NCBI GenBank assembly: GCA_015272515.1
Contig: JACYLN010000119.1
Span: forward strand, 1-62,414
Direction of reading: 5' to 3'
Length of the DNA: 62,414 bases
Source of the DNA: Leptolyngbyaceae cyanobacterium C42_A2020_001
Lineage (GTDB): Bacteria; Cyanobacteriota; Cyanobacteriia; Leptolyngbyales; Leptolyngbyaceae
Part shown: positions 39,107 through 41,256 of the stretch, one piece after another
How the letters are laid out: each line of letters begins with the position of its first letter
Numbering within the stretch: the stretch's first letter is position 1
The notes under the pieces: generated by a model
The model's database searches: none
Told to the model about the DNA's origin: nothing
Seen by the model: only the letters and a program-made list of their open reading frames with translations
Made by a program: the position numbers and the translations under genes

Positions 39107-39877
39107 CTAATCTTCTTCAAGCTCCATCGCCATCCTAACAGAGTCCGCATTGTTCAAGCCTGGCCGATTTTTGTCAACCAGTGGGTTGAGCGGACGACGG
39201 CTGGAAGGCGGTAACGATCCTGGAATAGTCACCTCAGGACTAACAATGCCCCCCGAAATAACTACCTTAAAGGCATCTTCAATTGGCATGGAGAGGTTAA
39301 TTACTTCAGCTTCGGGTACTATGGCGTACCAACCAGTGGTGGGATTGGGCGTAGTGGGGATGAACACACTCAACATGGGTTCCGAGAAATGCGACTGAAA
39401 CTCACCGCTGATGATGCCCGTGACAAAGCCTAGCGCCCAGATCCCAGGACGGGGATATTCCAGCAACACCACCCGCCGAAACCGATTCCCCGAATCTTTG
39501 AGTAAGGTTTCGAGTAATTGCTTTAGGGTTTTGTAAATGGAACCAGCTAATGGAATTGCCTGAAGTGTGCGCTCTCCAGTTTCGAGCAGCCAGCGTCCCG
39601 CAATATTCCGGGCCATCAGCCCAATCAGCAGGATGCAGGAGAGCGGAACGGCAAACCCTACAAGCAGGTTTAGCAAATTAACTAGAACTGGGTGCAATCC
39701 GTCAAAGGGATTGAGCTGATTGGGTACACGGGTGAGAAACCCGATGACCCACGTTGCGATCGTAATTGTTAACCAAATCGTTGTTGCTAGTGGAATCACG
39801 ACTAGCAACCCGGCGATCAAGTCGTTTTTCAAATCCTGCTTCAGGCGTTGCAGGAGGGTCAGCCCAGTTTCTTTCAT
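39107..39877 (-). CDS. DUF502 membrane protein
   Basis: 256 residues. Two membrane helices at about 18-40 and 68-90 are followed by a beta-rich domain: VVLLEYPRPGIWALGFVTG, then VFIPTTPNPTTGWYAIVPEAEVINLSMPIEDAFKVVISGGI, the DUF502 signature. The family occurs in plants as LCV-like proteins and in bacteria, with unknown function. The order DUF502-nusB-ftsY on one strand is seen in many cyanobacteria, suggesting a stable neighbourhood. Confidence 0.92.
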   Translation of the reverse strand: MKETGLTLLQRLKQDLKNDLIAGLLVVIPLATTIWLTITIATWVIGFLTRVPNQLNPFDGLHPVLVNLLNLLVGFAVPLSCILLIGLMARNIAGRWLLETGERTLQAIPLAGSIYKTLKQLLETLLKDSGNRFRRVVLLEYPRPGIWALGFVTGIISGEFQSHFSEPMLSVFIPTTPNPTTGWYAIVPEAEVINLSMPIEDAFKVVISGGIVSPEVTIPGSLPPSSRRPLNPLVDKNRPGLNNADSVRMAMELEED

Positions 39878-40086
39878 CAGTTGCAGTTAGTAGCCTTAAA
39901 GAAGCACAAACTATTCTTCTCTTAAGTATTGTAAACAAACACATGAATAAATGTTAACGCTACTGCCCTGTGTTTAGGCGTTGATTCATCTCATTTGAGT
40001 ATATTAGCGGCAGTTAGTATTGCAAATTACACTTTGCCTCAAATCGGCTTCATGCCGCATGGGCTGCCGATGCAGAGCGAAGGCAA

Positions 40087-40410
40087 CTATTTAATCGGAA
40101 TAAATGGCAGAAAGGTTTTGACGAATTTGCGAAGCTTCAATAGTCCAACGACACCTTTAACTTGCGAGGGAAGCTCTGAAGCGGGTTGATAGGTTGATTG
40201 TTGCTTGGTTTGCAGAACGGCATACTCGGCAGGTGTCATGGGTTTGCCGTCGATCGGCGATCGCGCATCCAAAATAATCTGGGTTCGCAACACTTCTTCT
40301 GGCATATCTTCTGCGGGTGGCAAGGCTAACGCCATCCCTACCGATGGCAGCAAAGCAATTGGAGAAAGCAACCCTGCTATTGTCGCCCGCCGAATTTGCA
40401 GTAGTTTCAT
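40087..40410 (-). CDS. Small exported protein of unknown function
   Basis: 107 residues from ATG 40410, which has GGAGG nine bases upstream; an earlier in-frame codon adds six residues. MKLLQIRRATIAGLLSPIALLPSVGMALA is a Sec-type signal with cleavage after ALA. The mature 78 residues contain PPAEDMPEEVLRTQIILDARSPIDGKPMTPAEYAVL, followed by a hydrophobic-basic end (LLKLRKFVKTFLPFIPIK). No named family, though the EDMPEEVLRTQI pattern seems characteristic. It is the third gene of a likely operon with the signal peptidase homologue and the small lipoprotein. Confidence 0.75.
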   Translation of the reverse strand: MKLLQIRRATIAGLLSPIALLPSVGMALALPPAEDMPEEVLRTQIILDARSPIDGKPMTPAEYAVLQTKQQSTYQPASELPSQVKGVVGLLKLRKFVKTFLPFIPIK

Positions 40411-40449: not shown

Positions 40450-40569
40450 CTATGACGATGTGGGGCTAGGGGAGGGGGCTGGTTGCGGCGGGTTAGCGCT
40501 GGGGGCGCAGGCACTTGCAACCACGGCGAGGCTGAGGGCGATCGCCCACACAATCCAGGTGCGGCTCAT
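40450..40569 (-). CDS. 39-residue predicted lipoprotein
   Basis: The reverse strand from ATG 40569 to a TAG at 40450 encodes 39 residues: a short N-terminus (MSRTWIVW), a hydrophobic run (AIALSLAVVASA) and then Cys21, making a lipobox V-A-S-A-C. The tail is rich in Pro, Ala and Ser (PPQPAPSPSPTSS). CAGGAG lies five bases before the ATG. Small Pro-rich lipoproteins with this plan are plausible cell-envelope anchors. It sits 28 bases after the lepB-like gene and 39 bases before the next one, all on the same strand. Confidence 0.75.
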   Translation of the reverse strand: MSRTWIVWAIALSLAVVASACAPSANPPQPAPSPSPTSS

Positions 40570-40597
40570 ATAGTCTCCTGACCACTATCATTCGCAA

Positions 40598-41170
40598 TTA
40601 AATTACTCCAGAACGGTCTGGAGGTAAGTACCGCCAGACGGCTTTTCCCATCATGTTTGCTCTGGGCACAAACCCCCAATAGTGGCTATCACAGCTATTG
40701 TTGCGGGAATCGCCGAGGACAAAATAAGAGTTTGCTGGCACAGATTGAGGTCCGTACTGATAATCGGGCTTTTCCAAAATATAGGATTCCTGGATGGGTT
40801 GCCCGTTGATCAGCACTTGTTGGTTGCGAATCTCAACCTTCTCCCCCGGTAACCCCACAATCCGTTTAATGTAAACGTTGTTGGTACGAGAGCTACTTTC
40901 TGTTGCGCCGCCACAAATGACCGATGCTTCTTCGGTTGCAATAAAGGTGACGACATCGCCACGTTGGGGATCGGTTGAGAGATAGGCCAATTTGTTGATT
41001 AAGATGCGATCGCCCACTTTGAGGGTTGGCTCCATTGCTTTGGAGGGGATGTATCGGGCTTCTAGCGCCAATCGTAGCGCCACAAACGCCGCAATACTCA
41101 AAATTCCTAAGCCTGCGGCAAGCCAGAGGAAAATATTAGGTTTTGCAGATGAAGAGTTGGATGGAGACAT
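40598..41170 (-). CDS. lepB: Signal peptidase I homologue lacking the catalytic Ser
   Basis: 190 residues with one N-terminal membrane anchor (about 12-32) and the S26 fold. Box B reads YIPSKAMEPT at 40-49, where the enzyme normally has Ser before Met; the residue here is Ala45 (codon at 41036-41038). Box D is intact: YIKRIVGLPGEKVEI with Lys102 as the general base, and box E is VLGDSRNNSCDSHYWGF. The preceding Ser43 is also present in active enzymes but is not their nucleophile. Either it is catalytically inactive or it uses another residue. It heads a likely operon with two small exported proteins. Confidence 0.92.
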   Translation of the reverse strand: MSPSNSSSAKPNIFLWLAAGLGILSIAAFVALRLALEARYIPSKAMEPTLKVGDRILINKLAYLSTDPQRGDVVTFIATEEASVICGGATESSSRTNNVYIKRIVGLPGEKVEIRNQQVLINGQPIQESYILEKPDYQYGPQSVPANSYFVLGDSRNNSCDSHYWGFVPRANMMGKAVWRYLPPDRSGVI

Positions 41171-41195
41171 ACAGGGGAGCGATCGCGATGCTTAC

Positions 41196-41225
41196 AAAAA
41201 CAGGCTAGCCGAATTGGTTAGCCTG
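41196..41225 (-). terminator. Rho-independent terminator of rpe
   Basis: On the reverse strand CAGGCTA and TAGCCTG form a 7-base stem with an 11-base loop, followed by TTTTT. It is between rpe and the lepB-like gene, so the latter probably has its own promoter. Confidence 0.8.
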
Positions 41226-41256
41226 CTTCTATTTTTTAATTGTTTGAAATGAAAAA

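What the first reader, a model, noticed from the sequence alone, without database searches (positions are those of the whole stretch)
40598..41170. Signal peptidase I homologue with Ala in place of the nucleophilic Ser
Seen: box B reads YIPSKAMEPT, with codon GCA (41036-41038) where the family has the Ser before Met; the catalytic Lys (Lys102 in YIKRIVGLPG) and boxes C-E are intact. Known: in E. coli LepB, Ser90 at this position is the nucleophile. Inference: either a pseudoenzyme that binds signal peptides or an enzyme with a rearranged nucleophile (Ser43 is two residues away). Full conservation of the rest of the fold argues against a decaying pseudogene.
Basis: partly seen in the sequence, partly recalled or inferred. 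Interest (0 to 1): 0.65.

Follow-up and report, generated by a model that had tools for sequence, protein, structure and literature searches.

The report
Signal peptidase copy without its nucleophile
A cyanobacterial gene looks like a spare copy of the enzyme that clips export tags off proteins, but its cutting residue is replaced by alanine; similar losses recur in other cyanobacteria, so it may be a reused, non-cutting helper protein, although this particular copy could also be fading away.

Summary
In detail: 40598-41170(-) encodes a 190-aa S26 protein (TIGR02227, 146 bits, cut-off 47) with Ala45 (GCA) at the LepB Ser90 position and Lys102 kept. Box E is not intact: residue 155 (LepB Asn274, which helps position the nucleophile) is Ser here, but Asn in all 156 readable Ser-bearing rows. 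The genome has two ordinary signal peptidases. The window copy shares a Cys86/Cys160 pair with the clade of its paralogue L001 only, so it is probably a fast-diverged duplicate; a genus mate lacks it at the same place. It has no close orthologue, but loss of the nucleophile recurs: 32 of 192 S26 rows read (31 genomes, six families; partly sought by pattern) have Ala or Gly, four of them with Lys lost too. A single clade is rejected (p 8e-30; at least seven changes). In one family (f7, taken for Nostoc-type) Ser and Ala copies share 10 loci, and the Ala copies are under purifying selection (dN/dS 0.16). Best reading: a catalytically dead signal peptidase that keeps its groove and works, like streptococcal SipA, as a non-cleaving binder. 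Main rival: a decaying duplicate. New variant of a known kind.

The parts
40598..41170 (-). S26A: signal peptidase I homologue, 190 aa, one N-terminal helix (residues 13-35 of the model), nucleophile Ser replaced by Ala45
   Evidence: predicted fold mean pLDDT 82.1
41036..41038 (-). codon GCA, Ala45, at the position of LepB Ser90
41042..41044 (-). codon of Ser43, two before the nucleophile position (LepB Ser88)
40865..40867 (-). Lys102, at the position of the general base Lys145
40706..40708 (-). Ser155 (TCC), at the position of LepB Asn274 (Asn in 156 of 156 readable Ser-bearing rows)
   Evidence: role of Asn274 from PMC12984324 passages
40913..40915 (-). Cys86, one of a Cys pair shared with the L001 clade
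40691..40693 (-). Cys160, second of the Cys pair
41201..41225 (-). terminator-like hairpin behind the upstream gene (rpe, named by eye), followed by TTTTTG, 30 nt before the S26A start; a similar one is seen at that place in genus mate G387
   Evidence: by eye; the scan lists this hairpin with a + strand tail only; 91-nt region -22 kcal/mol, z-score -2.8
40555..41252 (.). 698-nt stretch holding S26A without a DNA match in genus mate G387, where 214 nt lie between the same flanks

Best explanation
S26A is a catalytically dead copy of a type I signal peptidase that is still used as a protein. Shown: it has the S26 sequence family and predicted fold, an N-terminal helix, Ala at the nucleophile, Ser at the Asn that helps position the nucleophile, and it keeps Lys102 and 33 of 38 near-invariant residues. 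Shown: two ordinary signal peptidases are encoded in the same genome. Inferred: it arose by duplication of the Cys-pair paralogue (L001 type), lost acyl-enzyme chemistry and kept the peptide groove. It then acts on the periplasmic or lumenal face as a non-cleaving binder of signal peptides or precursor segments (a trap, holder or regulator beside the active peptidases), in the manner proposed for SipA. The confidence is for 'dead as a signal peptidase and still used'; client and compartment are guesses.
For: Homology and family scores. Two columns that do not vary among Ser-bearing rows are both changed; Asn274 helps position Ser90 and is also replaced in SipA according to PMC12984324 passages. 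Normal paralogues. Cys86/Cys160 occur together in 17 of 197 alignment rows (one further frame, L128, is split over two rows and has both): the window and the L001-type branch; AU test does not reject window + L001 group (p 0.54). Recurrence: 32 of 192 rows with readable box B are Ala (29) or Gly (3); a scan for any GNN codon at that position in 388 genomes gave 11 matches that are S26, 8 Ala and 3 Gly. Four Ala forms and one Gly form differ from the 38 near-invariant columns at S45 alone. Short f7 Ala copies: median dN/dS 0.158 (34 pairs) against 0.064 for their Ser copies (39 pairs). By VIA-align the predicted fold's best solved neighbour is the inactive SipA (Z 16.6, 1.9 A over 126), then SpsB 15.1 and LepB 14.1; SipA's small size may explain that, and Foldseek ranks SipA fourth behind SpsB.
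Against: No close orthologue, so selection on this gene cannot be measured. It was not found in the two other genomes held of its genus (one is 84% complete) and is missing from the same place in the complete one. Longest end branch of the 62-row tree (in the 107-row tree L034, L197 and L179 are longer). Only 33 of 38 near-invariant columns. It starts 30 nt after a terminator-like hairpin, and the promoter scan found no minus-strand site there. Lys102 is kept although of no evident use without a nucleophile. The intact-ORF argument is modest: neutral runs stay stop-free in 15.5, 7.2, 2.6 and 0.9% of cases at 85, 75, 65 and 55% identity.
Confidence: 0.55

Rival explanations
1. Decaying duplicate: S26A is a spare copy of the L001-type peptidase that lost its nucleophile and is drifting, with little or no function.
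For: Gene missing at the same place in genus mate G387; longest end branch of 62; five near-invariant columns changed, including N155S; start 30 nt after a terminator-like hairpin; no orthologue recognised in the 42 genomes of the family, where five Ala forms occur in four genomes.
Against: Full-length ORF at 60% identity to the nearest paralogue, while neutral runs stay stop-free in 2.6% of cases at 65% and 0.9% at 55% identity; 33 of 38 near-invariant columns, Lys102 and the Cys pair kept; GC3 0.51, near L001 at 0.54.
Confidence: 0.35
2. Still a peptidase with a moved nucleophile: Ser43, or Ser155 (new in this protein), attacks with Lys102 as base.
For: Lys102 is kept; Ser43 is present; Ser155 replaces Asn at a residue that contacts the nucleophile in LepB.
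Against: The residue at position 43 is Ser in 144 of 160 Ser-bearing rows, so it is no special feature; the other Ala form with Ser155, L176, has lost the Lys. Model coordinates were not at hand to measure distances.
Confidence: 0.06
3. Sequencing or assembly error at codon 41036-41038.
For: Draft genome of 149 contigs; a single-base difference (TCA) would give Ser.
Against: A second active-site change (N155S, codon TCC, two bases from an Asn codon), a long branch, and Ala or Gly at the same column in 30 other genomes, with three different Ala codons among 16 f7 copies.
Confidence: 0.02

Closest known systems
SipA/LepA of Streptococcus pyogenes (PDB 4n31, 4k8w)
   Same: S26 fold without the catalytic Ser; peptide groove kept; the Asn274-equivalent also replaced (PMC12984324 passages); best VIA-align match of the window model. 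PMC4049620 seen as passages.
   Different: SipA has Asp and Gly at the Ser and Lys sites and is needed for pilus polymerisation; the window protein has Ala and keeps Lys. None of the neighbouring ORFs looked at was recognised by eye as a pilus gene; no family search of the neighbours was run.
SpsA of Staphylococcus aureus
   Same: Inactive type I signal peptidase homologue beside an active one (PMC12445088 passages).
   Different: Lacks two catalytic residues according to that paper; the window protein lacks the Ser only.
Type I signal peptidase (LepB, SpsB; TIGR02227), cyanobacterial LepB1/LepB2
   Same: Sequence family, fold, N-terminal helix, general-base Lys, score above the cut-off. LepB1/LepB2 of Synechocystis from PMC3210150 passages; which of L001 and L002 is which was not tested.
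   Different: Nucleophile Ser and its positioning Asn are missing.
f7 Ala copies that share a locus with a Ser copy
   Same: Same Ser-to-Ala loss, Lys kept.
   Different: All non-Ser forms as one clade is rejected, so it is probably a separate loss; found in many species, whereas the window copy is solitary and lies on another contig than its active paralogues.

Membership tests
Type I signal peptidase (peptidase S26A, active enzyme) | Sequence family score above the curated cut-off | tested here: met
   PF10502 151.5 bits (cut-off 22.9), TIGR02227 146 bits (cut-off 47)
Type I signal peptidase (peptidase S26A, active enzyme) | Nucleophilic Ser in box B | tested here: not met
   Ala45, codon GCA
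Type I signal peptidase (peptidase S26A, active enzyme) | General-base Lys | tested here: met
   Lys102 aligned to the LepB Lys
Type I signal peptidase (peptidase S26A, active enzyme) | GDN of box E, whose Asn helps position the nucleophile | tested here: not met
   GDS; Asn in 156 of 156 readable Ser-bearing rows
Type I signal peptidase (peptidase S26A, active enzyme) | Cleavage of a pre-protein | not testable with these tools
   needs an assay
Inactive signal-peptidase-like proteins (SipA/SpsA kind) | S26 fold | tested here: met
   model mean pLDDT 82.1; SipA 4n31_B Z 16.6, rmsd 1.9, 126 aligned
Inactive signal-peptidase-like proteins (SipA/SpsA kind) | Catalytic Ser absent | tested here: met
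Inactive signal-peptidase-like proteins (SipA/SpsA kind) | Catalytic Lys absent as well | tested here: not met
   Lys102 present, (lost in L176, L062, L317, L197)
Inactive signal-peptidase-like proteins (SipA/SpsA kind) | A shown non-enzymatic function | not testable with these tools
   needs deletion and binding experiments

The most novel reading that the evidence does not exclude
The nucleophile has moved across the groove: Ala45 has lost the hydroxyl, and Ser155, which replaces the Asn that contacts the nucleophile in LepB, supplies it against the retained Lys102, giving a Ser-Lys protease with its serine on the omega loop instead of box B.
Probability: 0.04. Interest if true: 0.8.

Novelty: new variant of a known kind. 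Interest (0 to 1): 0.42.

Why it matters
The inactive signal peptidase homologues that I know of (SipA, SpsA) are from Gram-positive bacteria. Here the nucleophile is lost several times in cyanobacteria, to Ala or Gly, in 5 of 32 rows as the only change among 38 near-invariant columns, and in family f7 next to an intact copy. That makes a testable case for non-cleaving signal-peptide binders in cells that sort proteins between two membranes. It also warns that the TIGR02227 model gives these proteins scores far above its cut-off for signal peptidase I.

Tried and rejected
Single clade of non-Ser forms: rejected by the AU test, 176 log units worse; part of that rests on Ser copies nested among the f7 Ala copies, where gene conversion could mislead. 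Window + L045/L050/L117 (other small Ala forms of its family): already one side of a branch in the best tree, support 70/83, not starred, and L045 shares 59% identity over residues 36-189. This competes with window + L001 group (log-likelihood 1.0 higher than the free tree, p 0.54). The Cys pair, which is not among the rows of L045/L050/L117, decides me for L001, but the placement is not proven.

f7 Ala forms without their Ser copies as one clade: p 0.057, 34 log units worse, so these may be one loss or more. Co-variation of position 43 with loss: no signal by eye, 31 of 32 against 144 of 160 Ser. Enrichment of the long TM2-like architecture among non-Ser forms, 16 of 32 against 11 of 160 rows, Fisher 3e-8: not used as evidence, because Ala forms were sought by pattern, long Ser forms were fetched on purpose, and rows are related.

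PADLOC: no match for the two proteins given. First structure model with two sequences was poor (mean pLDDT 57.4) and was set aside. Active-site distances could not be measured; no coordinates were in the box. The genome-contig scan with the single window protein found one relative, from a MAG labelled Bacillota, with Ser. A first viral scan found none. Plasmid copies: two translated, both with Ser. The first tree (187 rows, FastTree, at least 12 changes) was replaced by trees of 107 and 62 rows (7 changes each). Rows left out of the trees as too short: L128, L158, L329, L133; fragments without box B were not counted. Pattern hits that are not S26 were dropped: 17 of 25 genomes, 8 of 19, 22 of 55 matching genomes carry IPSGAM or IPTAAM by their letters and 18 of these were read as S26. 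In one search one 15-residue S26A match near rpe (L307, E 0.97) was taken as chance.

Names of neighbours (rpe, DUF502, nusB, ftsY, lipoprotein-like, glyoxalase-like) and 'Nostoc-type' for family f7 are mine by eye or recall; no call names them. Papers: PMC4049620, PMC12984324, PMC12445088, PMC3210150, PMC5296341, PMC12756182 seen as passages; all others as search listings only. In some searches I saw no title, abstract start or passage that describes Ala-bearing cyanobacterial signal peptidases; the library lacks most subscription journals.

Full report
What is there. The minus-strand ORF 40598-41170 encodes 190 residues. It scores 151.5 bits to Pfam PF10502 (cut-off 22.9) and 146 bits to TIGR02227 signal peptidase I (cut-off 47). 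Aligned to E. coli LepB, Ala45 (codon GCA, 41038-41036) lies on the box B Ser (Ser90) and Lys102 on the general base (Lys145). A model built from 18 sequences has mean pLDDT 82.1. VIA-align matches it to SipA 4n31_B (Z 16.6, 1.9 A over 126), SpsB (Z 15.1) and LepB (Z 14.1); Foldseek puts SpsB entries first and SipA fourth.

The site is changed twice. I aligned S26 frames from the loci held and took the 38 columns at least 95% conserved among 158 Ser/Lys rows. The window keeps 33 and departs at R32L, A36L, S45A, V75T and N155S. Position 155 is Asn in all 156 Ser-bearing rows with a letter there (four have a gap); two Ala rows, the window and L176, have Ser, and 27 Ala rows keep Asn. PMC12984324 (passages) says that LepB Asn274 interacts with the nucleophile Ser90 and that it is Tyr in the inactive SipA. 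So 'boxes C-E intact' is not right for box E, and the second change fits loss of catalysis.

Paralogues and origin. The genome holds three PF10502 proteins: the window, L001 (IPSKSM) and L002 (IPSDSM). The window has Cys86 and Cys160. Both occur together in 17 of 197 alignment rows, and the other 16 belong, with the split frame L128, to one branch of the first tree that holds L001 (support 94). Highest identity in the trees is to L001, 60% over 145 columns; L045 reaches 59% over residues 36-189. The window's end branch is the longest of 62, and its place is open: window + L001 group gives a log-likelihood 1.0 higher than the free tree, p 0.54; window + L045/L050/L117 is also found, support 70/83. 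I take the Cys pair as deciding for a diverged L001-type duplicate; this is inference.

Locus. In genus mate G387 (one contig) the order rpe, small lipoprotein-like ORF, 107-aa ORF is kept, but 214 nt stand where the window has 698 nt with S26A. No S26A was found beside DUF502 in the 29 other loci of the family looked at (about 1.5 kb each side), nor beside rpe in 10 genomes. A terminator-like hairpin behind rpe (91-nt region -22 kcal/mol, z -2.8) stands in both species by eye and ends 30 nt before the S26A start, and no minus-strand promoter-like site was listed there, so separate transcription is not obvious.

Recurrence. Of 192 rows with readable box B, 160 have Ser, 29 Ala and 3 Gly; among the 32, Lys is replaced by Gln in three and Met in one. 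The 32 come from 31 genomes of six families. Counts are not a rate: many loci were sought by an Ala pattern. The least biased part is the window's family: PF10502 was searched in 42 genomes, and of 97 rows with box B read from that family 92 have Ser and 5 Ala, in four genomes. A scan of 388 genomes with any GNN codon at the nucleophile gave 19 matching genomes, 11 of them with an S26 protein there: 8 Ala and 3 Gly, no Val, Asp or Glu; other codons were not scanned. L049, L080, L225 and L243 (Ala) and L325 (Gly) differ from the 38 columns at S45 alone. All non-Ser rows as one clade is rejected (p 8e-30); the 62-row tree needs at least seven changes.

Ser/Ala pairs. In the family of G022 (f7; Nostoc-type by my recall, unnamed in the calls), 18 genomes gave Ala forms read as S26. 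In 10 loci of about 3 kb a Ser copy accompanies the Ala copy (e.g. L265). Short Ala copies have median dN/dS 0.158 (34 pairs with dS 0.05-1.5, range 0.076-0.236), long Ala forms 0.157 (8 pairs), Ser copies 0.064 (39 pairs, range 0.019-0.127): under constraint, but looser. This shows that a Ser-to-Ala signal peptidase can be kept; it does not show that the window's own copy is.

Verdict on mechanism. Loss of canonical catalysis is near certain from the chemistry of the family (established knowledge, not tested here). Whether the window protein is used is less sure: the intact ORF (neutral runs stay stop-free in 2.6% at 65% and 0.9% at 55% identity, but 15.5% at 85%) and the kept Lys and Cys pair speak for use; absence from the genus mate, the long branch and the hairpin speak for decay. 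I put 0.55 on a used non-cleaving binder and 0.35 on a decaying copy. A moved nucleophile is possible but unsupported: Ser at position 43 is ordinary (144 of 160 Ser rows, 31 of 32 others), and L176, which also has Ser155, has lost its Lys.

Known and new. SipA (PMC4049620, passages) and SpsA (PMC12445088, passages) are inactive homologues, so the kind is known. New to me are its repeated rise in cyanobacteria, the Ala/Gly replacements with the rest kept, and the Ser/Ala pairs; the searches listed under Tried and rejected showed no report of them.

Noticed in passing
L265 1023-1628 and 1808-2461 (and nine similar loci): Ser-bearing and Ala-bearing signal peptidase copies in the same locus in family f7; the Ala copies evolve under purifying selection, about 2.5 times looser than the Ser copies.
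   Followed up: partly
L049 1489-2772, L080 799-1938, L067 736-1950, L176 1492-2682 and others: S26 proteins with about 200 extra N-terminal residues holding a repeated TM2/DUF5683-like membrane motif (KEPWLAVNLS...PGIGQIYAG; most Pfam scores below cut-off), seen in 16 of 32 rows without the nucleophile and 11 of 160 with it; the sample is biased.
   Followed up: partly
L045, L050, L117 (f1 genomes G388, G389, G411): Small Ala-bearing S26 proteins in which the usual membrane anchor before box B is replaced by a secretion-signal-like N-terminus and a Cys-bearing stretch; in G389 and G411 they follow a similar 120-aa gene, glyoxalase-like by eye.
   Followed up: no
window 39107-40410 against L303 and L305: Gene order is broken between the 107-aa ORF and the DUF502-nusB-ftsY block relative to genus mate G387, where the two blocks lie about 0.47 Mb apart.
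   Followed up: no
G415 contig 2 (L123): Contig length 325,675 and hit position agree with plasmid AP017309.1 of Leptolyngbya sp. NIES-3755, which suggests that the window's family is Leptolyngbyaceae.
   Followed up: no
L117 4785-5453 and L120 4962-6056: Genome G411 holds two different Ala-bearing S26 proteins, one short and one of the long TM2-like type.
   Followed up: no
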